Source of the DNA: an uncultured Bacteroidales bacterium
GTDB taxonomy: Bacteria > Bacteroidota > Bacteroidia > Bacteroidales > P3
Assembly: GCA_905233895.1 (NCBI GenBank)
Contig: CAJOFL010000009.1
Location: 1 to 64,000, forward strand
Length of the DNA: 64,000 nucleotides
Reading direction: 5' to 3'
Part shown: positions 2,199 to 54,857 of the stretch, in pieces
How positions within the stretch are numbered: position 1 is the first letter of the stretch
Layout: each line of letters begins with the position of its first letter
Made by a program: the position numbers and the translations under genes
Notes under the pieces: generated by a model
The model's input: the letters and a program-made list of their open reading frames with translations, nothing else
Database searches by the model: none
What the model was told of the DNA's origin: nothing

Positions 2199-2591
2199 AT
2201 TTCAGTCAGTCATTTTTGCAATATTTAACGTAAAAAAGACAAAATTATTATGTAAAATCCAACATTTTTACAGATTAAAAACCTACCACCCATCGGCTGG
2301 ATTTATCTTTTTTTCAAAATATAGTAAATTATTAATTATCAATAAGATAAAATGTTAAAATTCACATAACCGCAAGAACGCCAGCTGGTTAGACCCACCT
2401 TCGCCTGATCAACGCCTGATCAACGCCTGATCAACGCCTGCCTTTCTCCGACAGGAGGAAGGCAGGTGAACGCGACCGAAGTGGAGCGAACGCCTGCCTT
2501 AAACTACCACACATTTCTATTTTTTTGCTGCCGGGGGGCAATAAATTGGCACGTTTTTTGTTATGTTAGAAAGCAACAAACGTTCCGATTT
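2199..2591. other. Divergent intergenic region with repeat copy A and a strong hairpin
   Basis: This gap lies between the divergent mpl and htrA-like genes. The mpl-proximal half is AT-rich and should contain its promoter, although no clean TAnnTTTG box was found. The right half holds the 71-bp dispersed repeat (2372-2442) and then a 13-bp stem with a GACA loop at 2437-2466. The stem is perfect apart from one G-T wobble, and its arms overlap the repeat's last bases. A further CGCCTGCCT copy lies at 2490-2500. No gene is seen. Confidence 0.7.
2372..2442 (+). repeat. Dispersed 71-bp element, copy A, with 11-bp tandem units
   Basis: A unique half (GCAAGAACGCCAGCTGG followed by TTAGACCCACC) is joined to three exact 11-bp units CGCCTGATCAA (2402-2434) plus a partial fourth. 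The same sequence occurs inverted at 54635-54705 with only two mismatches. Each unit contains the palindrome TGATCA and spans about one helical turn. AT-rich flanking sequence on the left is also loosely alike between the copies. Confidence 0.9.
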
Positions 2592-9582: not shown

Positions 9583-10142
9583 CACACAAGCTGACAACAC
9601 AGGAGATGGGCCGTATGACGGTGGAGGAGTTTCGCGCAAGTGAGAAACTTCCGCTGACGGTAGTACTCGACAATGTGCGGAGCCTGAACAATATCGGCTC
9701 CGTCTTCCGCACCGCCGACGCCTTCCGCGTGGAGCATATCGCCCTCTGCGGCATCACTGCCACCCCACCCCACCGCGAGATTCACAAGACCGCCCTCGGC
9801 GCCGAAGACAGTGTAGAATGGAGCTACCATGAGGATACCGCCGAATGCATCAAATCACTCAAGGAACAAGGCTACAAAATATATGCCGTGGAGCAGGTCG
9901 ACGACAGCATAAAACTTGGAGATGTATCATCCACTAACGCATTTACGCATTTACGCATTTACGCATTAAAAGTGGCCATAATCCTTGGCAACGAGATAGA
10001 GGGCGTACAAGAAAGCCTTCTGCCCCTCTGCGACGGCTGCCTCGAAATACCCCAGTACGGCACCAAGCACTCGCTCAACGTCAGCTGCGCTGCCGCTATC
10101 GTTATATGGGAGATGTTTAAAGAACTAAGAACTAAGAACTAA
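9579..10142 (+). CDS. TrmH/SpoU family RNA 2'-O-methyltransferase
   Basis: A 187-residue SPOUT methyltransferase that would methylate a ribose 2'-OH in tRNA or rRNA using SAM. The three SpoU motifs are visible: LDNVRSLNNIGSVFRTADAF (motif 1), AIILGNEIEGV (motif 2) and CLEIPQYGTKHSLNVSCAAA (motif 3, the knotted SAM pocket). Between motifs 1 and 2 the reading frame crosses a tandem 8-bp repeat of ACGCATTT at 9938-9966, which encodes an extra FTHLRIYAL-like stretch absent from typical members. The gene overlaps the TonB-like lipoprotein stop by ATGA. Confidence 0.9.
   Translation: MTHKLTTQEMGRMTVEEFRASEKLPLTVVLDNVRSLNNIGSVFRTADAFRVEHIALCGITATPPHREIHKTALGAEDSVEWSYHEDTAECIKSLKEQGYKIYAVEQVDDSIKLGDVSSTNAFTHLRIYALKVAIILGNEIEGVQESLLPLCDGCLEIPQYGTKHSLNVSCAAAIVIWEMFKELRTKN
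9938..9966. repeat. 8-bp tandem repeat inside the trmH-type gene
   Basis: Three to four copies of ACGCATTT/ACGCATTA occur in tandem and are translated in the methyltransferase frame. The same octamer family appears in pheT, murD and the M20 gene. Confidence 0.85.
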
Positions 10143-10161
10143 GAACCAAGAGCTAAGAGTT

Positions 10162-41957: not shown

Positions 41958-44576
41958 TCAACCTCTGATTTTGGCGCCCAGCTGGGTCTCGAGGGTCTTC
42001 TGGATTTTGGACATGGTAGCCTCAATCTGCTTGTCGGCGAGGGTCTTGTCCTTGTCCTGCAGGATGAAGCTGACGGCGTAGGACTTGAAGCCTTCAGTGA
42101 TGCCCTTGCCCTCATAGACGTCGAAGAGGCTGACAGACTTGAGCAGCTTCTTCTCGCACTGCAGGGCGGCCTGCTCTACCTGAGCAAAGGTGACATCCTT
42201 GCGCAGGATGAGGGCGAGGTCGCGCCGCACTTCGGGGAACTTGGCCACCTCCTGATACTGAACTTCCTTCGTGGGGTACTGCTTGAGGAGCAGCGTCCAG
42301 TTGAGGTCGGCATAATAGACGGGCTGCTTGATGTCCATCTTCTTCAGCGTCTCGCGGCCGATGCGACCGAGGGTGCCGAGCAGTTTCTTACTATCCCTCT
42401 GCACGATGTCGAGGCCTTCGGCGAAGAACTTGTACTGCGTCGGCACCATCTCCACGCGGCCCATGTTAACGCGCATGCGGTGCAGGATGTCCATGACGTA
42501 GGCCTTGAGGTAGAAGAAGTCGGTCTCGGAAGGCTTCATCTTCCAGCTCTCGGGCGTCATGTTGCCGGTCATGAAAATGCTGACGTGCTCGGTCTCAGCG
42601 AACCTTTTCGTCACCGGCAATTCGGAATATTCGGAGTTTTCAGAATATTCGGAATTCTTCAGATAAGATCTACCGAACTCATACAGCTTCTGGTCGAGGA
42701 TGCGGAAGTTGATATTGCGGGCGATGCACTCGAGGCCGCTATAGAGCAACGTCTGGCGCATCACGTTGAGTTCCTTCGAGAGGGGGTTGAGGATGGGGAT
42801 GCAACGGTCGGCGGGGAAGTCGGGGTTCTCCTCGTAATACTCGCTCTTGGTCAGCGAGTTGTTCATAATCTCGCTGAAGCCGTTGTCGGTGAGGTAGTCG
42901 CTGACGGCGTTCTTCAGTTTGCGCGGGTCGGGCTTCTTGCCGTAGCTGAGGCAGCTGTTGACGGTCTCGCCGATGTGGATGTTGTTGTAGCCGTAGATGC
43001 GCATGATTTCCTCCACGATGTCACACTCGCGGGTGACATCGGCCTTGCAGGTGGGCACCTTGAGGGTCATGCCTTCGGCGGTCTCGTTGACAATCTCGAT
43101 GTCGAGCGAGGTGAGGGCGGTGCGGACGGCCTCCAGCGGGATGTCCTGCCCCACGAGGTCGAACATACGGCGGAAGTTCACCTCAACGACGGGTTTCTCG
43201 ATGGGCTTCGGGTAGAGGTCCACCATCTGGCCGCATATCTCGCCGCCGGCGAGTTCTTGGATGAGCTTCACGGCACGACGCAGAGCCCACTCGGTGATAT
43301 TGGGGTCGCAGGTACGCTCGTAGCGGTAGCTGGCGTCGGTCTTCAGCGTGTGGCGCTGGCTGGTCTTGCGGATGCTCACGGGGTTGAAGAAGGCGCTCTC
43401 GAGGAAGACGTTCTTGGTCTCCATAGTTGTGCCGCTCTTCAGGCCACCGAAGACACCGGCGATGCACATAGGCTCCGCCAATGTGTTAATTTGTGAATTT
43501 GTTAATTCGTTAGTCTGACTCCCACATTCACACATTCCCGAATTCCCACATTCGCAACATATCATCAGGTCGCGGGCATCGAGCGTGCGCTCCACGCCGT
43601 CGAGGGTGACGAACTTGGTGCCCTGCGGCAGGCGCTTCACGATGACGTGGCCACCAGCAATCTGGTCGGCATCGAAAGCGTGCAGCGGCTGGCCCACTTC
43701 CATCATGACGAAGTTGGTGACATCGACCACGTTGTTGATGGGGCGCAGACCCACGGTGCGCAGGCGGTTCTGCAGCCACTCGGGGCTCTCCCCTACCTTC
43801 ACGTTGCGCAGCGTGATGCCGGTATAGCGCGGGCATAGGTCGGGGTCTTCGACAGTAACCCTGATTGCGTTATCGTGTGATTGCGTTATTGTGTTAGTGG
43901 CTGGCGCGTCAGCACTAACGCATTTACACGTTGACGCATTAACGCATTCAGAAACCTCCGGCCACTTAATCTTCAGCTGCTTCCCCTCGCGTGTATTTCT
44001 CACAGCCACCACGTCGCGGGCCACGCCGATGTGCGAGATGGCGTCCATGCGGTTGGCGGTGATGGCCACCTCCAGCAGGCAGTCGTCCTTCACGTGGAAG
44101 TACTCCTTGGCGGGCATTCCCACGGGGGCGTCGTCCGGCAGCACCATGATGCCGGCGTGGTCGGTGCCGAGCTGCAGCTCGTCGGCAGCGCAGAGCATGC
44201 CCTCGCTGACGGCGCCGCGCAATTTGCCCTTCTTGATCTCGTAGTAGTATTCGGTATCCGAGGTGTAGATCTTGGTGCCAATCTGTGCGCACACCACCTT
44301 CTGTCCGGCAGCCACGTTGGGGGCGCCGCAGACGATGTTCAGCGGACGCTCGCCGCCCACGTCGACGGTGGTCAGGTGCAGGTGGTCGCTGTCGGGGTGC
44401 GGCTCGCAGGTCAGTACCTGCGCTATCACCACATGCTCCAGACCGCCCTTGATGGTCTCCACCTTCTCCATGCTGTCCACCTCCAGACCGGAGAAAGTCA
44501 GCAGGTCGTCCAACTGTTGAGGAGTCATATCCTCAATATCCACATACTCTTTAAGCCAATCAAAAGAAATATTCAT
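41958..44576 (-). CDS. pheT: Phenylalanyl-tRNA synthetase beta subunit
   Basis: An 872-residue PheRS beta chain, longer than the roughly 820 usual in Bacteroidota. It has the tRNA-binding OB-fold domain (HVVIAQVLTCEPHPDSDHL), the B3/B4 editing domain, the B5 domain and the C-terminal anticodon-binding-like domain (EVAKFPEVRRDLALIL). It pairs with PheS to charge tRNA-Phe. The extra length is from three low-complexity inserts at about residues 208-240, 339-361 and 639-653, each encoded by short tandem repeats at 43860-43955, 43490-43560 and 42618-42660. No frameshift is seen, so the enzyme should be active. Confidence 0.96.
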   Translation of the reverse strand: MNISFDWLKEYVDIEDMTPQQLDDLLTFSGLEVDSMEKVETIKGGLEHVVIAQVLTCEPHPDSDHLHLTTVDVGGERPLNIVCGAPNVAAGQKVVCAQIGTKIYTSDTEYYYEIKKGKLRGAVSEGMLCAADELQLGTDHAGIMVLPDDAPVGMPAKEYFHVKDDCLLEVAITANRMDAISHIGVARDVVAVRNTREGKQLKIKWPEVSECVNASTCKCVSADAPATNTITQSHDNAIRVTVEDPDLCPRYTGITLRNVKVGESPEWLQNRLRTVGLRPINNVVDVTNFVMMEVGQPLHAFDADQIAGGHVIVKRLPQGTKFVTLDGVERTLDARDLMICCECGNSGMCECGSQTNELTNSQINTLAEPMCIAGVFGGLKSGTTMETKNVFLESAFFNPVSIRKTSQRHTLKTDASYRYERTCDPNITEWALRRAVKLIQELAGGEICGQMVDLYPKPIEKPVVEVNFRRMFDLVGQDIPLEAVRTALTSLDIEIVNETAEGMTLKVPTCKADVTRECDIVEEIMRIYGYNNIHIGETVNSCLSYGKKPDPRKLKNAVSDYLTDNGFSEIMNNSLTKSEYYEENPDFPADRCIPILNPLSKELNVMRQTLLYSGLECIARNINFRILDQKLYEFGRSYLKNSEYSENSEYSELPVTKRFAETEHVSIFMTGNMTPESWKMKPSETDFFYLKAYVMDILHRMRVNMGRVEMVPTQYKFFAEGLDIVQRDSKKLLGTLGRIGRETLKKMDIKQPVYYADLNWTLLLKQYPTKEVQYQEVAKFPEVRRDLALILRKDVTFAQVEQAALQCEKKLLKSVSLFDVYEGKGITEGFKSYAVSFILQDKDKTLADKQIEATMSKIQKTLETQLGAKIRG
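43860..43955 (-). repeat. Composite low-complexity insert in pheT, sister of the one in the M20 gene
   Basis: On the minus strand the insert runs from a TGCGTTAATGCGT-like array through a shared TGCTGACGCG core to ACGCAATCA-like units. It encodes a segment that begins ECVNASTCKCVSADA. The M20 gene has a related array at 51040-51126 encoding ECVNVLMRKCVSADA. Confidence 0.85.
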
Positions 44577-44623
44577 ATATGTATCAGTTTATTATCAATA
44601 ATATATACTCTTTGCATTACTCT

Positions 44624-44655
44624 GCAAAGATACTACATTTTTTTCAAACAGCAAA
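44624..44655 (-). promoter_or_regulatory. Bacteroidota promoter for pheT
   Basis: Reading the minus strand, TTTG (44652-44655) is followed after 20 bp by TATCTTTG (44624-44631), close to the TTTG-N19-TAnnTTTG consensus. The pheT ATG is 47 bp downstream. Confidence 0.7.
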
Positions 44656-44663
44656 GTAAAAAA

Positions 44664-44996
44664 TCAGTCTTCCAATGAATCAAATGCGCGACGAATTTCT
44701 GCATCACTGATATTCTCAGCCTCACTCTTGTCGTACATCTTTACCAGCACAATTCGTTGACATTGTTCGTCAACAATGTAGTTGAACGTAATAACCCTTG
44801 CGCCACCGCTTTTTCCCTTAGCTTTCGAGCGGATAGCAAGCCGTATCTTACGGAATCCTCCTGATAGTTCAACACCCATGAAGGGATTTTCCAGCAGCTG
44901 CGATTGCAGCAGACGCAAGTCATCGCGCAACGAGGCATATTTGCCCGACAGATGCTTGAAATTCTTGCGAAATTCGCGAGTGACAACAATATCCAT
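44664..44996 (-). CDS. RelE/ParE-family toxin
   Basis: A 110-residue protein with the RelE/ParE fold pattern: MDIVVTREFRKNFKHLSGKY at the N-terminus, LSGGFRKIRLAI in the middle strand, ARVITFNYIVDE and IVLVKMYDKSEAENIS at the C-terminus. Such toxins cleave ribosome-bound mRNA (RelE) or block gyrase (ParE). The longer basic loop KSKAKGKSGGARV is typical of the HigB/RelE-like subgroup. It is encoded 3 bp after the antitoxin gene in one operon. It lies between pheT and the type II restriction island. Confidence 0.88.
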   Translation of the reverse strand: MDIVVTREFRKNFKHLSGKYASLRDDLRLLQSQLLENPFMGVELSGGFRKIRLAIRSKAKGKSGGARVITFNYIVDEQCQRIVLVKMYDKSEAENISDAEIRRAFDSLED

Positions 44997-44999
44997 GGG

Positions 45000-45209
45000 T
45001 TATGCTTCTGCCAAAAGATCATCTAACGATTCTGCTTTCAACTCACCTACGGCAATCTGCTTCGCCTCTTTGGCAGCAGAACACAAGGATGACAGGAACT
45101 CCGATTTCGCATTGTTTTCTGTCGTAAACCGCATCTTCATCTCACGTGCAAGCGAAACCAGAATGTCATACTGCGACTGGTTGCTGGGATACATAGTAAT
45201 TGCATTCAT
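45000..45209 (-). CDS. Antitoxin of the RelE/ParE pair
   Basis: A 69-residue protein directly upstream of the toxin. It starts MNAITMYPSNQSQYDILVSL, reminiscent of the N-terminal DNA-binding or toxin-contact segment of Bacteroidota antitoxins, and ends with an acidic helix (ELKAESLDDLLAEA) that would wrap the toxin. It would neutralise the toxin and repress the operon, probably through the repeat-rich DNA upstream. Assignment is by position and size. Confidence 0.8.
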   Translation of the reverse strand: MNAITMYPSNQSQYDILVSLAREMKMRFTTENNAKSEFLSSLCSAAKEAKQIAVGELKAESLDDLLAEA

Positions 45210-45294
45210 AACATCTTATTTTTAAGTTTGTAACGCAACATATCGGTTTTTATTGTGTAGCGAGAGAAAATGTTTTTCAATATATCTCCGACTG

Positions 45295-45302
45295 CAAAGA
45301 TA
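45295..45302 (-). promoter_or_regulatory. -7 box of the toxin-antitoxin operon
   Basis: The minus strand reads TATCTTTG, a match to TAnnTTTG, 86 bp upstream of the antitoxin ATG. The 22-bp repeat array begins 2 bp upstream of it, so the -33 region lies inside the repeats. Confidence 0.7.
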
Positions 45303-45303
45303 C

Positions 45304-45435
45304 AAAAAATCTTCAAATCTCCAACAAAAAATCTTCAAATCTTCAAAAAAAATCTCCGATTCTTCATCCAAAAATCCTCAATTCTTCATCATAAAATCTT
45401 CAAATCTTCGGAGAAAAATCTCCGATTCTTTTTTC
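45304..45435. repeat. Six tandem 22-bp A-tract repeats upstream of the toxin-antitoxin promoter
   Basis: Units start at 45304, 45326, 45348, 45370, 45392 and 45414. Their consensus begins AAAAATCTTCAAATCTTCA with three variable bases. Units 3 and 6 share a CTCCGATTC variant. The 22-bp period is close to two helical turns, so the A-tracts are roughly in phase. Confidence 0.85.
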
Positions 45436-45450
45436 AACAACCATATATTT

Positions 45451-45508
45451 ACCACCGCCGAAACACAACAACCTCTCGACAATCCGTCGGCGATGTTTCG
45501 GCGGTGGT
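45451..45508. repeat. 14-bp perfect inverted repeat with 30-nt loop
   Basis: ACCACCGCCGAAAC at 45451-45464 pairs exactly with GTTTCGGCGGTGGT at 45495-45508. The right arm is part of a 29-bp direct repeat (45481-45509) found again at 45700-45728 with four mismatches. Confidence 0.85.
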
Positions 45509-45537
45509 GACTCCTGCTGCTTCACATCACAGGAAAT

Positions 45538-45575
45538 AATGACGAAAACAAACTTTTTTTGCCATTTTCGTCATT
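45538..45575. repeat. 11-bp perfect inverted repeat with T-rich loop
   Basis: AATGACGAAAA (45538-45548) and TTTTCGTCATT (45565-45575) form a perfect stem around a 16-nt loop containing seven Ts. It may be a terminator remnant or a recombination site beside the ATPase fragment. Confidence 0.7.
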
Positions 45576-45580
45576 AATCA

Positions 45581-45700
45581 CTAAGCAAGATACGCGACTC
45601 ATATCCAAAATATCTACTTACCACCGACTTTGAGGCATCAAACATTGAAGGTATCCAACGGCTTAATGTCATCGATTGGCTTTTGAAAAAGAACAACTAA
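45581..45700 (+). pseudogene. C-terminal remnant of an AAA+ ATPase with DUF4143-type tail
   Basis: The frame from 45581 to the stop at 45698-45700 encodes 39 residues ending DSYPKYLLTTDFEASNIEG followed by IQRLNVIDWLLKKNN. This resembles the conserved C-terminus of Bacteroidota ATP-binding proteins that end in a DUF4143-type domain. The rest of the gene (about 350 residues) is absent: an in-frame stop lies just upstream. It is a deletion remnant with no start codon. Confidence 0.7.
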
Positions 45701-45871
45701 ATCCGTCGGTGTTCCTTCGGCGGTGGTGTTTCTTCGGTCCTTCTTGGTGGGTTATATATGGGTCCTTTTGCTCATAGGATACAAGAAAAAAAAGAGCATA
45801 TCTTCCACGACAGATATACTCTTAGTTTCCCCCAATTATCGAGCTCCTGCCACTGTATGGGCGGCTTTTGA

Positions 45872-46627
45872 TTACTCAAACAATTCTGCTGGATTTATCT
45901 TAAACTGTAAATCCTTTGCAGAATCCCGACCGCCGTCCCCACCCTTTCTCTGCATTGTTATTCTTCCTATACGAAAATTCCCTCGTTCAGTGATTTCAAC
46001 ATCCCCATTACCAAAGAAGTTGAGACAATAGTTCATTGGCTTCAGCACCCAACGAGCATTATACATTACTTTTTGTGCAACGAGCATCCATTCCGCAGCG
46101 AACTCTCCGCGACCTTTCAGTATATCCGATACAATAAGTATCTTGTGTTGACGTATCCAATCCAGGACCAATCTTTGCTCAGGGAAAGAAAACTCATCGG
46201 CAAACATCCTACGTGGGTCTTTGGGATTCGGAATTGATGGTTTATCCTCTCCCGTATAGCGTCTTAGGACTGACCTTACATTTGAAGGCATTCCCCATAG
46301 ATCGGCATATCTGTCCACCCGTCGCCTTTCTATCTGATTGAATCCATTAACATTGCTTACAAGTTTCACCTGTAGATTTCGAATATCTATGGCTTTCTTG
46401 AGATAGATAGTAACCTGAACCTGAACATCTGTTTTATAATGCCCAGACAATATTACTGCCTCCACATGCTCAATATCTTTTAAATCATAGTTCATTATAC
46501 GAAGCCACCTTTGAGCATCCTCATCATAGCGCCAATTGTTGAACTTGCTTGCTACTTCCTTTTCATTCTGAAAGCCTTGGCGCGCAGTCAAACTGCCAAG
46601 AAGCACTGGATCGATTATTGTCGACAT
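45872..46627 (-). CDS. Type II restriction endonuclease, HinP1I-like
   Basis: A 251-residue predicted endonuclease encoded directly downstream of an M.HhaI-like methyltransferase and overlapping it by about 13 bp. The active-site spacing T66-D67, then 18 residues, then Q86-V-K88 matches the S/T-D-X18-Q-x-K pattern known for HinP1I, a GCGC-cutting enzyme of similar length (247 residues). HinP1I cuts G^CGC in a monomeric, MspI-like fold. The C-terminal RIGRITMQRKGGDGGRDSAK is another strand-plus-basic segment. Cleavage of GCGC is an inference from motif spacing and the partner methyltransferase. Confidence 0.82.
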   Translation of the reverse strand: MSTIIDPVLLGSLTARQGFQNEKEVASKFNNWRYDEDAQRWLRIMNYDLKDIEHVEAVILSGHYKTDVQVQVTIYLKKAIDIRNLQVKLVSNVNGFNQIERRRVDRYADLWGMPSNVRSVLRRYTGEDKPSIPNPKDPRRMFADEFSFPEQRLVLDWIRQHKILIVSDILKGRGEFAAEWMLVAQKVMYNARWVLKPMNYCLNFFGNGDVEITERGNFRIGRITMQRKGGDGGRDSAKDLQFKINPAELFE

Positions 46628-47601
46628 AATGATATAATTTTAGATATTTCACCGACAATATATTGAAGCACGTCTATCGTAACACTGTTACCAAATTGCT
46701 TGTACGCCTGTTGCTGGTTTGGGTGTACGACAAAATCATCCGGAAAACCCTGTAATCTGGCACATTCCCGTGGGCTCAACTTCCTGACAAGTCCATTGAT
46801 ATAATACAGTCCTGTCTTCGCTCCCGCACCGCCACCATACGCACTAAGTGTGATTGCATGTCCAATGGGGTCATATATTCGCTCACCCTGCCCCCCTTTG
46901 TTTACAATTCCAATCTGAATTGGCCTATTGGGCAATTCGCCGCTCACGGCAGGCTCTTTATATATTTGAATATCTTTCCTTTCAATGATTTTAGCATCTG
47001 TTGGACAGTTTTCGAGAAGATCTTTTAGTGTTGATACCTCATTGATGCATGGGAATGAAAAAGTATGTCCTTGCAGAATATCATCTCGGAAACAAACCAT
47101 ATAAATACGTTCCCTGTGTTGAGGCACACCGAAATCACCACTGTTAAGCACTTTGAAAAACATCGAATAACCAAGTTCATCCATTGTGCCTTGTACAACT
47201 TTGAATGTACGTCCCTTATCATGTTGCACAAGATTTTTAACATTCTCCATAAAAACAACTTTGGGCATGTGATGTTTCACTATGCGAGCTATGTCAAAAA
47301 ACAAAGTTCCACGGGTATCATCAAAACCAAGCCGCTTGCCACTGACTGAGAATGCTTGACACGGAAAACCACCGCACAAAATATCATGGGGCGGTATCTC
47401 CTCAGCAGCAATCTTGGTGATATCACCAGACGGCATCATTCCAAAATTGGAAAAATAAGTTTCTTGGGCAGGTTTATCCCACTCTGATGCATACAAGCAT
47501 TCTGCACCATACGAGGATAAGGCGTAATGGAAGCCGCCTATTCCTGCAAACAAATCAATAAAAGAATAACCTTTTAGGCTCTTTTCTGTTACTTCGATCA
47601 T
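46615..47601 (-). CDS. DNA (cytosine-5-)-methyltransferase, M.HhaI-like
   Basis: A 328-residue C5-cytosine methyltransferase. It aligns by eye with M.HhaI along its full length: FIDLFAGIGGF (motif I), FPCQAFSVSGKRLGF with the catalytic Cys at residue 81 as in M.HhaI, VVFMENVKN (motif VI), QHRERIYMVCF (motif VIII), then GIVNKGGQGERIYDP, ITLSAYGGGAGAKTG in the target-recognition part and QAYKQFGNSV (motif X). The target is therefore probably GCGC, protecting the host from the paired endonuclease. The ATG lies 4 bp from a hairpin (47606-47635) that may block its ribosome access. Confidence 0.95.
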   Translation of the reverse strand: MIEVTEKSLKGYSFIDLFAGIGGFHYALSSYGAECLYASEWDKPAQETYFSNFGMMPSGDITKIAAEEIPPHDILCGGFPCQAFSVSGKRLGFDDTRGTLFFDIARIVKHHMPKVVFMENVKNLVQHDKGRTFKVVQGTMDELGYSMFFKVLNSGDFGVPQHRERIYMVCFRDDILQGHTFSFPCINEVSTLKDLLENCPTDAKIIERKDIQIYKEPAVSGELPNRPIQIGIVNKGGQGERIYDPIGHAITLSAYGGGAGAKTGLYYINGLVRKLSPRECARLQGFPDDFVVHPNQQQAYKQFGNSVTIDVLQYIVGEISKIISLCRQ

Positions 47602-47605
47602 TTTT

Positions 47606-47635
47606 GTGATTGATTAGCGCATTGCTATCAATCAC
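47606..47635. promoter_or_regulatory. Hairpin at the methyltransferase start codon
   Basis: GTGATTGAT and ATCAATCAC pair over 9 bp, extended by AGC/GCT around a GCATT loop. On the minus strand it ends four bases before the ATG and occupies the place of a ribosome-binding site. Confidence 0.7.
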
Positions 47636-47650
47636 TTATCGGCAACAAGA

Positions 47651-47827
47651 AAGGCGTGAGCCTTGATTGCGTTCAGGGAAAGCCTAGGAAGAAACCCCTG
47701 TAATGTTGCAAAGCACACGCCAAATGGCGCAGGCCACCAGCAACATTACTTGGTTACCGTCGAGCGGCTTACCTTGAACTATCTTTTCCGATTATCAAAA
47801 TCAGTTTCCTAGGCTTATTTTGAACGC
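47651..47827 (+). ncRNA. Candidate structured RNA with long closing helix
   Basis: GCGTTCA (47669-47675) pairs with TGAACGC (47821-47827), and AAGCCTAGGAA (47680-47690) with TTCCTAGGCTT (47806-47816). The 4-nt joint GGGA/ATTT gives three G-U pairs plus one A-A mismatch in the plus-strand RNA only. Inside are GTAATGTTGC/GCAACATTAC (47700-47709, 47740-47749) topped by CGCCA/TGGCG, and a CCG/CGG hairpin near 47752-47773. Just upstream is AAGGC-GTGA-GCCTT (47651-47664) with a GNRA tetraloop in plus-strand sense. It resembles no Rfam class I can name. No reverse transcriptase is in the window, so a retron is not supported; a MITE-like DNA element is the alternative. Confidence 0.55.
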
Positions 47828-47925
47828 GAAATGGTAGTCAATGCTATGTTATTTTGTTTCTATTATATTCTTTTTTATCTCATTGTTTTATTTTTATTTT
47901 CGACTGCAAAAATACAAAAAATATT

Positions 47926-48275
47926 CTATTTCGTTTTACCTAAATAAAAGACATCAAAATACCGCTGCATGGCATTTGCATCTGTATGATAGATGTTCTT
48001 GCCGTAGTAGTAATCGGCCATCACCTCGTAGAGGCGGCACAGCTCCTTCAATCCTGCTCGGTTCTTGTTGGCGTCGATGGTCAATGATACAAGCTCCAAC
48101 GCACGGTCGGCGGCACGGTGGCACTGCTCCTCATTGCCTTTGTTTTTCCAGCGGTTGGCACGAGACACCTCGCTGCCGATGTTCAGCATCTGCTCGGCCA
48201 ACGACATCTGTGCCCAGCGACCAGCAGCCAGGTCCTTGTGTTGGAACTCCATCGTCAGCATGGCAGCAAATGACA

Positions 48276-48276
<1 letters not shown>
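47926..48276 (-). CDS. Small helical protein of unknown function
   Basis: A 116-residue, all-helical-looking protein: RWAQMSLAEQMLNIGSEVSRAN, then AADRALELVSLTIDANKN and LKELCRLYEVMADYYYGKN. This conserved pattern occurs in an unnamed family of about 115-residue bacterial proteins, and a four-helix bundle is plausible. The ATG overlaps the glnS stop by one base (TAATG), so it is translated with glnS. A shorter start at MLTMEFQ is possible. The role is unknown. Confidence 0.75.
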
Positions 48277-49970
<1,694 letters not shown>

Positions 49971-50022
49971 AACGATTTGAAAATATTTATATTATAATAC
50001 AATTATCTATAAAATCAAACTG

Positions 50023-50053
50023 CAAAGGTACATAAAACCGACGACATGGCAAA
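50023..50053 (-). promoter_or_regulatory. Full Bacteroidota promoter for glnS
   Basis: On the minus strand TTTG (50050-50053) is followed by exactly 19 bp and TACCTTTG (50023-50030), matching TTTG-N19-TAnnTTTG. The glnS ATG lies 52 bp downstream. Confidence 0.8.
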
Positions 50054-50122
50054 ATAATAATTCAAAAAAAACAATACAATACTGCATATCAATATTTTTT
50101 CCCAATAATTAAAAAATATTTG

Positions 50123-50130
50123 TATCTTTG
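50123..50130 (+). promoter_or_regulatory. -7 box almost touching the LEA-lipoprotein start codon
   Basis: TATCTTTG ends only 4 bp before the ATG at 50135. Transcription from this box should start at or next to the A of the ATG, which predicts a leaderless or nearly leaderless mRNA. Confidence 0.65.
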
Positions 50131-50134
50131 CAGC

Positions 50135-50803
50135 ATGAAAAAAATAACCTTAGTATTAGCCCTCGCAGGTTCTATCCTGCTCAGTTCGTGTGACATACTC
50201 AACGAACTTGCCAGTCAGTTCAGCAGTGTGGCCAATCTGGCAAACTGCGAATTCAACCTCAAAAACGTCTCCAACGTCACTGTGGCAGGCGTCAACGTGA
50301 AGAACGTGACGCAAGGCAACTTATCGGCCACCGACGTGGTGAAACTTGTGGCCGCCTACCAGGCCAAGAAGGTACCGCTGTCGATGAATGTCAATGTCGA
50401 TGTGACCAACCCCACCACCACCCAGGCCGCTATGACGGCGCTGGACTGGATTCTGTCCATCGACGGTACCGACATGGCCAACGGAGTCAACTCCAACAGC
50501 TACACCATCAAGCCATCGGCCACCACCACCGTGCCGCTGGGCGTCAATGCCGAGTTGGCCGACCTCTTCTCGAAAAAGAGTGTTGAGGCCCTGAAGAACT
50601 TCGCCGCCAGTTTCAACAACGAAGGCATCTCGTCGAAGGTAGGTCTGCGAGTGCGCCCCAGCCTCTCGGTTGGTACCACCCAGGTGCCCTTCCCCAACTA
50701 CATCACCCTGGAGAAGAAGACCGGCACCACAACCAGCACCACAGCCAGCTCAACCTCGGGCAACGGCAATACCAACGGTCCTACCCTGTCACAAACCAGG
50801 TAA
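50135..50803 (+). CDS. LEA type 2-like (WHy domain) lipoprotein
   Basis: A protein of 222 residues. The signal MKKITLVLALAGSILLSSC places the lipid-carrying Cys at residue 19. The mature part matches the LEA-2/WHy beta-sandwich seen in Bacteroidota lipoproteins: CEFNLKNVSNVTVAGVNV, then KKVPLSMNVNVDVTNPTTTQ and a C-terminal VGLRVRPSLSV. A Thr/Ser-rich low-complexity tail ends the protein. It is probably on the periplasmic or outer face of the outer membrane. The start ATG lies 4 bp after a -7 box, so translation may be leaderless. A terminator follows. Confidence 0.82.
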   Translation: MKKITLVLALAGSILLSSCDILNELASQFSSVANLANCEFNLKNVSNVTVAGVNVKNVTQGNLSATDVVKLVAAYQAKKVPLSMNVNVDVTNPTTTQAAMTALDWILSIDGTDMANGVNSNSYTIKPSATTTVPLGVNAELADLFSKKSVEALKNFAASFNNEGISSKVGLRVRPSLSVGTTQVPFPNYITLEKKTGTTTSTTASSTSGNGNTNGPTLSQTR

Positions 50804-50830
50804 ATATTTTATTTCAAAATAACGCAATAA

Positions 50831-50862
50831 AGAAGGCGAAGGTTGACCTTCGCCTTCTTTAT
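50831..50862. terminator. Bidirectional terminator between the LEA lipoprotein and M20 peptidase genes
   Basis: AAGAAGGCGAAGG and CCTTCGCCTTCTT form a 13-bp stem with a TTGA loop, followed by TTTATT. It overlaps the stop codon region of the convergent M20 peptidase gene. Confidence 0.92.
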
Positions 50863-51989
50863 TGTGCTAACTGGAAGAACAGTTGGGCGGCGGGCTCGAT
50901 GAGGTCGTCGGGGAAGTCGTAGGAGGGGTGGTGCAGCTCGGGCTGGTGCTCACCGCTACCGATGCCGAACATGGCACCGGGGAACTCCATCAAGTACTCG
51001 GCGAAGTCCTCACTCCAGCGGAAAGGCTCCTCCTTAACGATTACGTTAATGCGTGATTGCTTGATTGCGTTAGTGTTTGTCGCGTCAGCACTCACGCATT
51101 TACGCATTAACACATTAACACATTCCTCATGGTTCTCCGTGGCGTGGAAAGGCTCCACCAAAGAGCGAGATACGGTGAGGCTGTGGCGGGAGGCAATCTC
51201 GTCGACAGCACTGTTGGCGTCGGACAGGAGCCGTTCCATCGCAGCGTTGGTGAAGGCGCGGAGGGTGAACATCACCTCAGCATGACCTGCCGATGTACCA
51301 AAAGCCGGTTCGCCAAGACGGACACAGATGAGGGTGGATTGCCGGAACTCACCATTCAACCCATTAAACCCGTTGAACCTATTGATAATCTCAGCCACTG
51401 CAAGGCCTGGATTGAGGCCCAGTTCAGGCGTGGAGGCGTGGGTCTCGCGACCGTCGAGGCGGTAGACGACGCCCGTGGAGGCGGCGGCAAAAGTGCGCGG
51501 ACAGATGACGACGGTGCCGAGCGGATAGCCTGGAAGGTTGTGCAAGGCATAGAACGCCTTGATGTCGTACTGCTGCAATATGCCACTGTCGAGCACGGCG
51601 CGCGAGCCGGTGCCGGTCTCCTCGGCGGGCTGCCAAAGCAGTAAAATTGAGAATTGAGAATTGAGAGTTGAGAATCTCTCATCTATCAGTTCGGCTAAGC
51701 GTAATAATATAGTGGTATGACCGTCGTGGCCACAGCGGTGACCTATGGGGAGGGCATCGGTGTCGGCCCGGAAGGCAACTGTTGGAATGCGTGAATGCGT
51801 GAATGTGTTATTGTGTGAATCTTTGGCTTCCCAGACGGCGATGACGCCGTAGCCACCCACATGGGTGTAGACCTTGGTCGGGTGCAGGCCTTGCAGGTGA
51901 CGGACAATCATATCATGGGCAAACTGTTCGTTGCCGGCGGTCTGAGGATGGTCGTGCAATGCTTTGCGAATGGAGATATAGTCAGTCAT
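50859..51989 (-). CDS. M20 family amidohydrolase/peptidase with several low-complexity inserts
   Basis: A 376-residue zinc-dependent hydrolase of the M20D (aminoacylase/hippurate hydrolase) type. It has IRKALHDHPQTAGNE (substrate end), ALPIGHRCGHDGHTTILL (zinc His and Asp), WQPAEETGTGSRAVLDSG and a C-terminal GSGEHQPELHHPSYDFPDD with the last zinc-binding His. Four low-complexity inserts from tandem repeats lie at 51040-51126, 51345-51378, 51640-51676 and 51786-51822. The gene overlaps the murD stop by 4 bp. It may act in peptide or peptidoglycan-derived amide turnover, but its substrate is unknown. Confidence 0.88.
   Translation of the reverse strand: MTDYISIRKALHDHPQTAGNEQFAHDMIVRHLQGLHPTKVYTHVGGYGVIAVWEAKDSHNNTFTHSRIPTVAFRADTDALPIGHRCGHDGHTTILLRLAELIDERFSTLNSQFSILLLWQPAEETGTGSRAVLDSGILQQYDIKAFYALHNLPGYPLGTVVICPRTFAAASTGVVYRLDGRETHASTPELGLNPGLAVAEIINRFNGFNGLNGEFRQSTLICVRLGEPAFGTSAGHAEVMFTLRAFTNAAMERLLSDANSAVDEIASRHSLTVSRSLVEPFHATENHEECVNVLMRKCVSADATNTNAIKQSRINVIVKEEPFRWSEDFAEYLMEFPGAMFGIGSGEHQPELHHPSYDFPDDLIEPAAQLFFQLAQ
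51040..51126 (-). repeat. Composite low-complexity insert in the M20 peptidase gene
   Basis: Built from octamer-type units (TAATGCGT, ACGCAATC) around the same TGCTGACGCG core as the pheT insert and in the same reading frame relative to it. It adds about 30 residues with the shared ECVN/CVSADA pattern. Confidence 0.85.
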
Positions 51990-53257
51990 TTCAGTTTCAT
52001 TATCTGTTCGCGGAAAAAGTCACCGCGATGCTCGAAGTTCTTGAATGCGTCGTAGGAGGCGGCTGCCGGAGAGAGGAGCACCACCCCACCCTGAGGCGTA
52101 TGCTCGGCACACCAGGGAACGATCTTGGTATAGTCGTCCTCTTCGAGGAATTGAGTATTGAGTATTGAGAGTTGGGAATGAATTCTGCGGCCGGCGGCAC
52201 CGACGAAGACGAGGTTTTTTATTGCGTGATTGTGAGATTGCGTAATTGCTTGAGTGAGGAATTCGACCAGCGGCTGGTAGTCGATACCACGGTCGAAGCC
52301 CCCGAGGATAAGGGTATCCACACGGCCAAGGGCCTTGACGGCGGCAATGGCGGCTGCGGGGATGGTGGAGATGCTATCGTCGTACCAAGTAATACCGCGC
52401 ACTTCGGCCACTTTCTCCAAACGATGCCGCAATCCAACAAATGTAGACATCTGCTGGGTGGATACAGGCACTCCCAGAAGATTCGCCACACGGCAAGCCA
52501 CGAGGGCGTTGCTGCGGTTATGGTCGCCCTCGAGGGGGAAAGCATCGAGGAGAGTGCGTTCCTCATCGGTGATATCGTTGAGGGAATAGGGGTGCATACA
52601 CGAGCGTACACTTGGGTACGCCTCTACGATGTTGCGCAGTTCGTCATTGTCGGTACAATAGAAGAAATGGTCTCCCTCGCGCTGACGGAGGGCTATCTGC
52701 ATTTTGGCCATCTTGTAGCCCATATAATCGTCGTAGTGGTCGAGATGTTCCTGGAAGAGGTTAAGAAGCACGGCGATATGCGGGGCACGGTGGATATTCT
52801 CCAACTGGTGGCAGCTGAGTTCGGCCACGACTATGCTGTCCTCACGGAGGTCGTCGAGGATATCGAACAGGGGTATGCCAATATTCCCTGCAAGTATCGA
52901 GCCTGGCAGGAGGTGGTGGATAAGGCTGGCGGTGGTGGACTTGCCCTTGGTGCCGGTGACGCCAATGGTGAGGTCACCGTAGACCTGAAGGAAGAGGTCG
53001 GTGAGGGAAGAGACTTCGAGACTTCGGGGCTTCGAGACTTCAAGTACTCGCATAGGCACACCGGGCGACTTGATGATGAGGTCGTAGTCTTTAGCACTCT
53101 CGGCGGCAATCTGCTCGTTGCCGTCGGCGATGGTATAATCGGCCTGCGGAAGGAGCCGCTGGATGAGCCGTTCGACACTCTTACCTTCACGGCCGTAGCC
53201 GGCAATCAATATCTTGCGACCCTCGAGCAGGGCTTTCAATTGGTCTTCGCGGTACAT
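51986..53257 (-). CDS. murD: UDP-N-acetylmuramoyl-L-alanine-glutamate ligase (MurD, MurD2-like)
   Basis: A 423-residue Mur ligase adding glutamate to UDP-MurNAc-L-Ala with ATP. The N-terminal domain has KILIAGYGREGKSVERLI, the P-loop is GVTGTKGKSTTASLI, and NLFQEHLDHYDDYMGY is the Mur His segment. The C-terminal domain contains WYDDSISTIPAAAIAAVKAL in the place where classical MurD has NDSKATNPGST; this is closer to MurD2-type ligases, which use L-Glu. The neighbouring murL-like gene fits that. Inserts from short repeats lie at 53008-53047, 52213-52250 and 52150-52185. Confidence 0.9.
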   Translation of the reverse strand: MYREDQLKALLEGRKILIAGYGREGKSVERLIQRLLPQADYTIADGNEQIAAESAKDYDLIIKSPGVPMRVLEVSKPRSLEVSSLTDLFLQVYGDLTIGVTGTKGKSTTASLIHHLLPGSILAGNIGIPLFDILDDLREDSIVVAELSCHQLENIHRAPHIAVLLNLFQEHLDHYDDYMGYKMAKMQIALRQREGDHFFYCTDNDELRNIVEAYPSVRSCMHPYSLNDITDEERTLLDAFPLEGDHNRSNALVACRVANLLGVPVSTQQMSTFVGLRHRLEKVAEVRGITWYDDSISTIPAAAIAAVKALGRVDTLILGGFDRGIDYQPLVEFLTQAITQSHNHAIKNLVFVGAAGRRIHSQLSILNTQFLEEDDYTKIVPWCAEHTPQGGVVLLSPAAASYDAFKNFEHRGDFFREQIMKLK

Positions 53258-54567
53258 GCGTCTTGTAGGATTTTGCGTTCTACGGGAGTGAGGTTGCCGA
53301 TCGGCAAGAGTGTGTTAAGGGCTATAGGATCAATAAGGACATTAAAGTCTTTAAGGAGGGATGGGCGTTCCGTTTTATACCAGCGGGCGAGAGCCATCGA
53401 GAGAGCCTGGCGCACTTCGCTGACGGTGCCTACGCACTCGAAGGGCTTTGTCTCCTCCTCGCCGAGAAGTTGGCGGAACTCATGCTCGAGAGTGATGTCG
53501 TCGAGCATCGACTTGCCGAATATCTGGTTAAGCCTTGCGGGTTCGATGAACGGCGAAAGGATGATATAGGCAAAGAGGCACTTGGCACAGTGTCCGCACC
53601 AGATGTCCTGCTTGCTACCCACGTTGCACGAGCGGAATACATCATGATAGGCCGTGAAACGGCTGAAGAGCATGGCAATCTGAAGTTCGGAGAGCGGCCT
53701 CAAAAAACTGAAATAGTTGAATCCAGGGCAATAGTGGCGGAAGTCGTCCTCGAACTCGAGACTCTTGCTGTACTGATGATTCACATCGGAGCCGATAACG
53801 GTGCTTTCATTGGCTGAACTCTCGTTGGAGAGGGCCACGTTGGGGATGCCGCTGAGGGCCGAGGCGAGGCGAGTGTAGAAAGCCAGCATTGCGCTGAAGG
53901 GGGTATGTCCATTGAGGTAGCCCTTCGCGTTCAGTTCCAGCAGCGTAGGATCTATCGTGCGACGTATCACCAACACTTCATCCATCGGGAATCCAGCCAC
54001 TCGAGCGCACTCGACGGTGGCGCCGCGTGGATTCATGATGAGGGGGCGGATAGTCTTGCCAGAACGGCGCAGGAGCTCGAGGGTGACCACGCTGTCCTTG
54101 CCGCCGCCAATGGGAACGATATAAAGTTGAGAGTTGGCTTTCGCACACGAATAATTCTCAATTCTCAATTCTCCACTCTCAATTTCGAGAAACGCCTCAG
54201 GCGTTTCTTGAATGCCGTTGGTATAGAAGAACTCGCCGAGTCCATGCCAGTAGAGTTTCTTCCAGAAGGCAACCTGCTCAGAAGAGAGGCTTCCGCAGAG
54301 GACCCGCACCGTTGGCGGACAGGCACATTTCCAGTAGCTTATCAGCTCTATCATGCCGATATTGAAGACGATAGAGTCAATATCGACGTCGAAGTTGAGG
54401 AACGGGCGCCGCTCGATGAGGGCGGTGGGATGGAACTCGATGTCGCCCATGCGGAAGTCGAACCATAGGCGCAACCCCTCGGGGCACACCTCGTGGTGCC
54501 ATGCCACATACTCAAACTCAGGATATTGCGCCCGTAGCGAGCGGTACTTTTCGTTGTTGTCGGTCAT
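53236..54567 (-). CDS. murL: UDP-MurNAc-L-Ala-L-Glu epimerase-like protein (MurL family)
   Basis: A 443-residue protein with an ATP-pyrophosphatase-type loop, PIGGGKDSVVTLELL, near residue 150. It is followed by SNESSANESTVIGSDVNHQY and a Cys-rich CNVGSKQDIWCGHCAKCLFA. This layout fits MurL, which epimerises the L-Glu of UDP-MurNAc-L-Ala-L-Glu to D-Glu in Xanthomonas, completing the path begun by MurD2. The partner ligase gene starts within its last 22 bp. An upstream start at 54597 is possible, but MTDNNEKYRSLRAQYPEF fits better. A 7-bp repeat at 54150-54187 adds a hydrophilic insert ahead of the PP-loop. Confidence 0.8.
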   Translation of the reverse strand: MTDNNEKYRSLRAQYPEFEYVAWHHEVCPEGLRLWFDFRMGDIEFHPTALIERRPFLNFDVDIDSIVFNIGMIELISYWKCACPPTVRVLCGSLSSEQVAFWKKLYWHGLGEFFYTNGIQETPEAFLEIESGELRIENYSCAKANSQLYIVPIGGGKDSVVTLELLRRSGKTIRPLIMNPRGATVECARVAGFPMDEVLVIRRTIDPTLLELNAKGYLNGHTPFSAMLAFYTRLASALSGIPNVALSNESSANESTVIGSDVNHQYSKSLEFEDDFRHYCPGFNYFSFLRPLSELQIAMLFSRFTAYHDVFRSCNVGSKQDIWCGHCAKCLFAYIILSPFIEPARLNQIFGKSMLDDITLEHEFRQLLGEEETKPFECVGTVSEVRQALSMALARWYKTERPSLLKDFNVLIDPIALNTLLPIGNLTPVERKILQDACTAKTN

Positions 54568-54597: not shown

Positions 54598-54857
54598 TTT
54601 ATTGTGCCGAATCGAAAATAAAGGGGTAGTACAGGGCAGGCGTTGATCAGGCGTTGATCAGGCGTTGATCAGGCGAAGGTGGGTCTAACCACCTGGAGTT
54701 CTTGCTCTTAAGCGATTTTTAACATTATATAACACACATAATCAACAAGTTAAATATTTTTCAAAAAGTCAAATATTTTTTCCGTAACCGGCACAATAAT
54801 CCTCCATCGGGAGCGTTATGACAACAAAAAAGAAACAAACCAACACCTGACAGACAG
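54598..54857. other. Divergent intergenic region with repeat copy B
   Basis: This gap separates the leftward murL and rightward yajC. It contains the inverted copy of the 71-bp element (54635-54705) and an AT-rich flank. No ORF or clear -7 box was found. As with copy A, the element lies between two diverging genes. Confidence 0.7.
54635..54705 (-). repeat. Dispersed 71-bp element, copy B (inverted)
   Basis: The reverse complement matches copy A (2372-2442) in 69 of 71 positions, including all three exact 11-bp units and the partial fourth. The AT-rich flank (54706-54775) resembles the left flank of copy A loosely. The two copies are in opposite orientation, 52 kb apart. Confidence 0.9.

What the first reader, a model, noticed from the sequence alone, without database searches (positions are those of the whole stretch)
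43860..51126. Two related composite inserts in unrelated essential-type genes (pheT and the M20 peptidase)
In pheT (43860-43955) and in the M20 gene (51040-51126), both on the minus strand, an insert of about 30 codons has the same order: aaTGCGTtaATGCGT-like units, a common TGCTGACGCG core, then ACGCAATCA-like units. The peptides share ECVN...CVSADA and a Thr-Asn-x-Ile-x-Gln-Ser pattern. The host proteins are unrelated and neither fold needs this segment. This is what a small mobile or gene-converting intragenic element would look like, comparable in concept to the Rickettsia palindromic elements, but I know of no description of this one in Bacteroidales.
Basis: partly seen in the sequence, partly recalled or inferred. 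Interest (0 to 1): 0.8.

Follow-up and report, generated by a model that had tools for sequence, protein, structure and literature searches.

The report
Dispersed coding palindromes in gut Bacteroidales
A short mirror-image DNA repeat has spread through genomes of a group of gut bacteria, sitting between genes and also inside unrelated genes, where it is translated as an extra loop, much as is known in Rickettsia but with a different build.

Summary
The pheT and M20 inserts are two copies of an ~88-bp imperfect palindrome: four octamers (AATGYGTN), a core (AGTGCTGACGCGCCAGCCACT), four inverted octamers (AACRCAAT). A model of it finds 26 places in this genome (E<=0.01), six in the window. At E<=1e-6 it is in 71 of 119 genomes of the genus and 0 of 197 others of the order. 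Most relatives lack it at both sites, so it is not ancestral to either protein. Fourteen host protein families carry it in the 62 copies examined, always in one orientation and, in 13, mainly in one frame (ECVNALMRxCVSADAxxTNxITQSHNNAI), though both strands offer open frames. Orthologous sites without it hold other 7-/8-mer arrays in 14 of 64 cases against 26 of 2019 control windows. Coding copies lack 10-54 bp of host sequence; two intergenic sites gained about the whole element. Best reading: a selfish, non-autonomous, protein-tolerated palindromic repeat that works like Rickettsia palindromic elements but is built differently, copied as a unit. The machinery is unidentified; this genome shows no Y1 (REP-type) transposase, and no phage match was found. 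Templated overwriting is inference.

The parts
43861..43949 (-). Full element inside pheT, about residues 209-238, just before the Pfam B3_4 match (248-444)
   Evidence: R1 109.8 bits, E 1.7e-21
51037..51125 (-). Full element inside the M20 peptidase gene
   Evidence: R1 98.8 bits, E 6.1e-19
43477..43553 (-). Eroded second element in pheT (CECGNSGMCECGSQTNELTNSQINT); G004 has a clear octamer element at the same place
   Evidence: (E 9.4e-6)
9913..9970 (-). Half element: four octamers plus CACT half core
   Evidence: (89% over 36 nt, minus strand); R1's better match is on the + strand (E 1.5e-4), as a palindrome matches on both
51783..51830 (-). Octamer half element near the N-terminus of the M20 gene (DSHNNTFTHSRIP); G004, G009, G010, G022, G024 have a shorter loop, G002 another extended one
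   Evidence: (E 0.006)
52218..52264 (-). Octamer half element in murD (TQAITQSHNHAIKN); not in the relatives aligned
   Evidence: (E 8.9e-4)
51642..51676 (.). Heptamer array (AATTGAG) in the M20 gene; related phenomenon, not the same element
52150..52177 (.). Heptamer array in murD at a site holding differently built heptamer arrays in other species

Best explanation
The inserts are copies of a selfish, non-autonomous palindromic repeat (4 octamers, core, 4 inverted octamers, ~88 bp). SHOWN: whole elements are dispersed over unrelated loci in one genus; many relatives lack them at the same sites; in genes they stay open in one orientation and nearly always one frame, so the host protein gains a translated segment at a tolerated place; the same sites are reused by arrays or palindromes of other 7-/8-mer make. 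INFERRED: a copy is made as a unit, probably through a single-stranded or hairpin intermediate, and is written into or over a target, sometimes by annealing at short similarity (gene-conversion-like); selection then keeps only copies in spacers and linkers that leave the gene working. No element-encoded or dedicated enzyme was found; the machinery is presumed to be a host repair or replication enzyme, or an unidentified one.
For: Dispersal: 26 non-overlapping places in G000 at E<=0.01 (42 matches, palindromes hit on both strands, 150 of 546 candidates scored); 85 of 119 genus genomes at E<=1e-3. Empty sites: pheT insert in G000, G002, G004; the site is 51 bp shorter in 7 of 8 relatives measured, the eighth (G022) holding another palindrome; M20 site 33 bp shorter in G004, G009, G022, G024. 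Intergenic gain: two relatives lack 90 bp at L022, one lacks 87 bp at L019. One orientation: of 62 copies, 39 lie in a through-running frame; 34 of these fall in 14 host families (one representative each Pfam-recognised), all 34 same orientation, 31 frame 0; the other 5, antisense, have no Pfam hit. Open frames are about equally common on both strands (17 and 19 of 40). Conserved columns follow the 8-bp period, not codons (A2 G5 T8 A10 G13 A18 G21 A26). Site reuse: 14 of 64 vs 26 of 2019. Arm exchange: in L092 a GAAATTC-type array stands in place of the left arm, core and right arm intact.
Against: No movement within a species was observed and no enzyme identified. 34 of 119 genus genomes gave no match. 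Similarity of an element end to the ancestral host sequence exceeds 95% of control positions at only 4 of 14 junctions (M20 left; pheT right for 2 of 3 relatives; L021 right; L121 right), so annealing at short similarity is not general. Loss of host bases could be later trimming. The control windows are mostly coding DNA and its rows are not independent (the 14 come from 8 of 17 sites), so part of the reuse may only mean that linkers and spacers tolerate inserts. Some sites are shared by species whose flanks are only 79-89% identical, so turnover is slower than 'mobile' may suggest.
Confidence: 0.6

Rival explanations
1. REP/REPIN- or IS200-like mobile palindromes moved by a Y1 (HUH) tyrosine transposase (RAYT).
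For: Palindromic, multi-copy, hairpin-capable: z -3.1 and -3.8 for folding of the two window copies as single-stranded DNA. 46 of 61 genomes searched have Y1_Tnp.
Against: G000 (97.8% complete draft) has none, nor do element-bearing G008, G009, G014, G019; G001 and G012 have Y1_Tnp but no element match. The consensus has no GTAG or CGTC tag.
Confidence: 0.12
2. Tandem arrays arise in place by replication slippage or template switching; likeness between loci is convergence from one mutational bias.
For: Arrays of period 7 and 8 are over-represented: 4 and 5 in the window, against 0 at periods 2-6, 9, 10 and 2 at period 11; murD sites in different species carry differently built heptamers with little length change.
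Against: Copies at unrelated loci share the whole 88-bp plan, core and fixed left/right asymmetry included, the best full-length ones at 78-98% identity; independent slippage cannot make that.
Confidence: 0.12
3. A functional RNA or DNA structure (terminator, attenuator, protein-binding site) kept by selection at each site.
For: At pheT the element differs by 0-3 of 89 bases between five species while flanks differ by 5.5-14.8%; octamer positions are highly conserved.
Against: No covariation above shuffles (78.4% of cells paired, shuffles 78.7%); no Rfam family reaches its gathering score in window 43000-52000; found in many unrelated coding regions and absent from orthologues.
Confidence: 0.08
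4. Reverse-transcribed or telomerase-like repeat addition at breaks.
For: Short strand-asymmetric 7-/8-mers that differ between species; G000 has one RVT_1 match.
Against: Element-rich G002 and G004 (98% complete) have no RVT_1 match; 8 of 16 genomes searched have none. Inverted whole-element copies do not fit.
Confidence: 0.04

Closest known systems
Rickettsia palindromic elements (RPE; Ogata et al. 2000, 2002; seen only as summarised in PMC10969869 passages)
   Same: Palindromic, multi-copy, in-frame in unrelated protein genes with a conserved translated peptide; part of the copies outside ORFs.
   Different: Shorter (~88 bp vs ~150 bp quoted), built from 8-bp tandem units around a core, in Bacteroidales; differently built arrays reuse the same sites; coding copies go with loss of host sequence.
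REP / REPIN elements with RAYT (PMC3733652 passages; abstract start)
   Same: Dispersed palindromes, some intragenic.
   Different: REPs are 20-40 bp; here ~88 bp, no GTAG/CGTC tag, no Y1 transposase in G000.
Short tandem heptamer repeats (TAACTGA repeats, PMC4679880 passages; cyanobacterial STRR, recalled)
   Same: Short tandem units of 7-8 bp, dispersed, origin unknown.
   Different: Those are direct repeats, mostly intergenic in the genome studied; here octamers form a palindrome around a fixed core.
PARCEL palindromic coding repeats (PMC2996958 passages) and nematomorph mitochondrial coding palindromes (PMC6649704 passages)
   Same: Palindromic DNA that is translated.
   Different: PARCELs are tandem 75-nt protein-repeat units; nematomorph repeats are perfect inverted repeats in mitochondrial genes.

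Membership tests
Rickettsia palindromic elements | Palindromic repeat present in many copies in one genome | tested here: met
Rickettsia palindromic elements | In-frame presence in unrelated protein-coding genes with a conserved peptide | tested here: met
   34 copies in 14 host families, one orientation
Rickettsia palindromic elements | Sequence homology to an RPE family / occurrence in Rickettsiales | not tested
   No RPE sequence was compared; one exact pattern of the element found 41 contigs in GTDB species genomes, all titled Bacteroidales or Bacteroidetes
REP/REPIN with RAYT | GTAG or CGTC tag at the foot of the hairpin | tested here: not met
   absent from the consensus
REP/REPIN with RAYT | Y1 tyrosine transposase in the genome | tested here: not met
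   0 PF01797 matches in G000 (draft, 97.8% complete)
MITE | Terminal inverted repeats shared with an autonomous transposon | not tested
   Of five stretches fetched with close copies only L338 was read: between copies 1.1 kb apart lies one metallophosphoesterase-like frame (annotation recalled)
MITE | Target-site duplication | tested here: inconclusive
   None evident by eye at the L022 site; too few clean sites
STRR-type tandem repeats | Direct tandem short units | tested here: met
   each arm is four octamers; the palindromic plan is extra

The most novel reading that the evidence does not exclude
A genus-wide templated overwriting system: single-stranded palindromic cassettes made of interchangeable 7-/8-mer arms and a core repeatedly rewrite the same linkers and intergenic spacers in different species, without a classical transposase, so that protein loops are continually replaced by alternative coding palindromes.
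Probability: 0.3. Interest if true: 0.88.

Novelty: new variant of a known kind. Interest (0 to 1): 0.7.

Why it matters
Translated palindromes inside protein genes are best known from Rickettsia; intragenic REPs are reported elsewhere (PMC3733652 passages). A differently built case in gut-associated Bacteroidales, with many related genomes carrying filled and empty sites, makes it possible to test how such elements move, why one frame and orientation survive, and whether they supply new loops to proteins. Annotation and protein alignments in this genus should expect non-homologous inserted loops.

Tried and rejected
Considered and dropped: ancestral protein segment (most orthologues lack it); integron attC (motifs do not fit, by eye only); RNA-structure function; phage origin (the pheT copy has no blastn match at E<=0.01 in 50,697 phage records; 0 exact matches of one pattern in IMG/VR); RAYT or RT as needed machinery; an autonomous copy between close elements (one locus read). 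RNAalifold did not recover the long palindrome; I named that structure myself. Microhomology at junctions was mixed. Structure prediction was not run.

Rows dropped and limits: 66 locus ids went into, 4 duplicates were removed, 62 left; the sample is biased, being the best matches to the pheT copy or the model, and orthologous sites recur in it. Only one representative per host cluster was Pfam-tested. In one search, 11 of 81 site-by-genome rows had no locatable flanks; of the 70 left, 6 held the octamer element and 64 were counted; the G022 row at L022, counted as another array, is an octamer variant just below my cut-off; weaker arrays (L177, L223 and others) count as none. In one search six rows could not be measured. 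Of the 17 loci whose flanks were searched, L126 was not aligned. score at most about 14 and 36 candidates per genome, so copy counts are lower bounds. One search used stricter filters and E<=1e-6; the like-for-like count of 71 of 119 is mine from the best E-values listed.
Full report
CHECK. The two inserts exist at 43861-43949 (pheT) and 51037/51039-51125 (M20), both on the minus strand. The genome-wide search with the pheT copy gives the M20 copy at 82% identity, E 2.7e-18, and further full-length copies on contigs C12, C3, C41 and C1. A consensus of 25 copies reads GAATGCGTTAATGCGTTAATGCGTnAATGCGTnAGTGCTGACGCGCCAGCCACTAACACAATAACGCAATCACACAATAACGCAATCAn: four octamers, a nearly palindromic core, and four octamers that are the inverted complement of the left ones except for one fixed mismatch each. 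In the full-length register 78.4% of cells pair, against 23-38% when slid by 1-3 columns; compensatory change is not above shuffles. Conserved columns recur every 8 bases, not every 3, so conservation is at the DNA level.

SPREAD. A model gives 42 matches at E<=0.01 in the window's genome, which I collapse to 26 non-overlapping places since a palindrome matches both strands (two adjoin on C13); six lie in the window. In the genus 85 of 119 genomes, the own one included, match at E<=1e-3, 71 of 119 at E<=1e-6 by my count of the listed best values. In a draw of 198 genomes of the order only the window's own matches at E<=1e-6, under stricter filters; the other 197 include two of another genus of the same family. 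One exact pattern scanned over 84,980 species genomes gave 41 contigs from, by my count, 19 assemblies, all titled Bacteroidales or Bacteroidetes, several naming ruminant gut. No match in phage collections.

EMPTY AND FILLED SITES. In PheT the insert is present in 3 of 21 same-genus sequences aligned (G000, G002, G004) and in none of 9 from the order; G022 has at the same spot a palindrome of another make (GAATGAG-type units). In 7 of 8 relatives measured the site is 51 bp shorter; three of these (G023, G010, G001) have a short heptamer array in the short linker. Two more genomes, G139 and G089, share the pheT element; among the five it differs by 0-3 of 89 bases while flanks differ by 5.5-14.8%, and 1-19% of flank windows are as similar. 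At the other shared sites element and flanks look about equally diverged by eye. In the M20 gene G004, G009, G022 and G024 are 33 bp shorter, while G002 and G010 carry heptamer arrays, inverted about a core in G002. For 16 further copies or half copies in G000 and G002 orthologous stretches from up to four relatives were aligned. Net gain was 90 bp at L022 (two relatives) and 87 bp at L019 (one), both intergenic, but 33-75 bp in the full coding copies measured (pheT, M20, L021, L090, L120, L121) and 36 bp for the 46-bp half copy L029; so 10-54 bp of host sequence are missing beside coding copies, the exact number depending on where the element's ends are set. Sites are reused: among 64 located orthologous sites without the octamer element, 14, from 8 of 17 sites, hold another period-7/8 array, against 26 of 2019 length-matched windows elsewhere in the same loci. 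In murD several of the five stretches compared carry heptamer arrays of different make in different species with little length change. Locus L092 joins a GAAATTC-type left arm to the octamer core and right arm, which suggests exchangeable arms.

IN GENES. Of 62 distinct copies examined, 39 lie in a frame that runs through. Thirty-four of them fall into 14 host families, one representative of each recognised by Pfam: PheT and M20; a Mur ligase, GH97, an alpha-L-rhamnosidase, Peripla_BP_2, a two-domain ABC ATPase, ArsP_1, LPG_synthase_C, PriA, an FGGY kinase, an FAD/ferredoxin oxidoreductase; an amidohydrolase and a GT9 glycosyltransferase. All 34 are in one orientation, 31 in frame 0 (exceptions L018, L077, L098). 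The other five ORFs run antisense and match no Pfam family, so I treat them as spurious. Both strands of the element have an open frame about equally often (17 and 19 of 40), so the bias points to selection; the antisense reading is hydrophobic (LIALLCDCVIVLVA), a plausible reason but inference. In PheT the insert lies about ten residues before the B3_4 match and opposite gaps in the alignment to the best solved bacterial PheT sequence.

MACHINERY. The window's genome has no Y1 transposase match. RVT_1 is missing from 8 of 16 genomes, element-rich G002 and G004 among them. No shared enzyme was identified. Copying through a single-stranded or hairpin intermediate with gene-conversion-like writing is inference from whole-element copies, arm exchange, missing host bases and reuse of sites; end similarity to the host is above 95% of controls at 4 of 14 junctions only.

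KNOWN OR NEW. The nearest concept is the Rickettsia palindromic element, seen here through passages of a 2024 review (PMC10969869) and of PMC3733652; of the originals, the 2002 paper was asked for and is not held, the 2000 paper was not looked up. Searches of the held library listed no description of such elements in Bacteroidales; most subscription papers are not in it. I call it a new variant of a known kind: it works like an RPE, but homology to RPEs was not tested.

Noticed in passing
window 10117-10159, 48398-48431, 51642-51676, 52150-52177, 54152-54182: Short heptamer arrays inside and between genes; period 7 and 8 stand out among short periods, and in 326 kb of relatives period 7 gives 52 arrays, one of them a run of N.
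   Followed up: partly
L100, L101, L102, L109, L111 murD region vs window 51986-53257: Several stretches of murD carry species-specific heptamer arrays with little length change, as if host codons had been overwritten in place.
   Followed up: partly
L219 and L225 (G022), in part L218 (G004): A larger insert of about 170-210 bp with AACGGCGAATT-type start and inverted end sits at intergenic sites; perhaps another palindromic family.
   Followed up: no
L087, L099 (G021), L096 (G043): Direct arrays of whole half-elements (CACTAACGAATTAACACATT-type) in tandem, another mode of amplification of the same octamers.
   Followed up: no
window 45872-47601: A DNA cytosine methyltransferase-like gene (motifs recalled, not searched) and a companion ORF lie between pheT and the M20 gene, as a restriction-modification pair would.
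   Followed up: no
window 2396-2444 and 54632-54681: An 11-bp-period array (CCTGATCAACG) occurs twice in opposite orientations, 52 kb apart.
   Followed up: no
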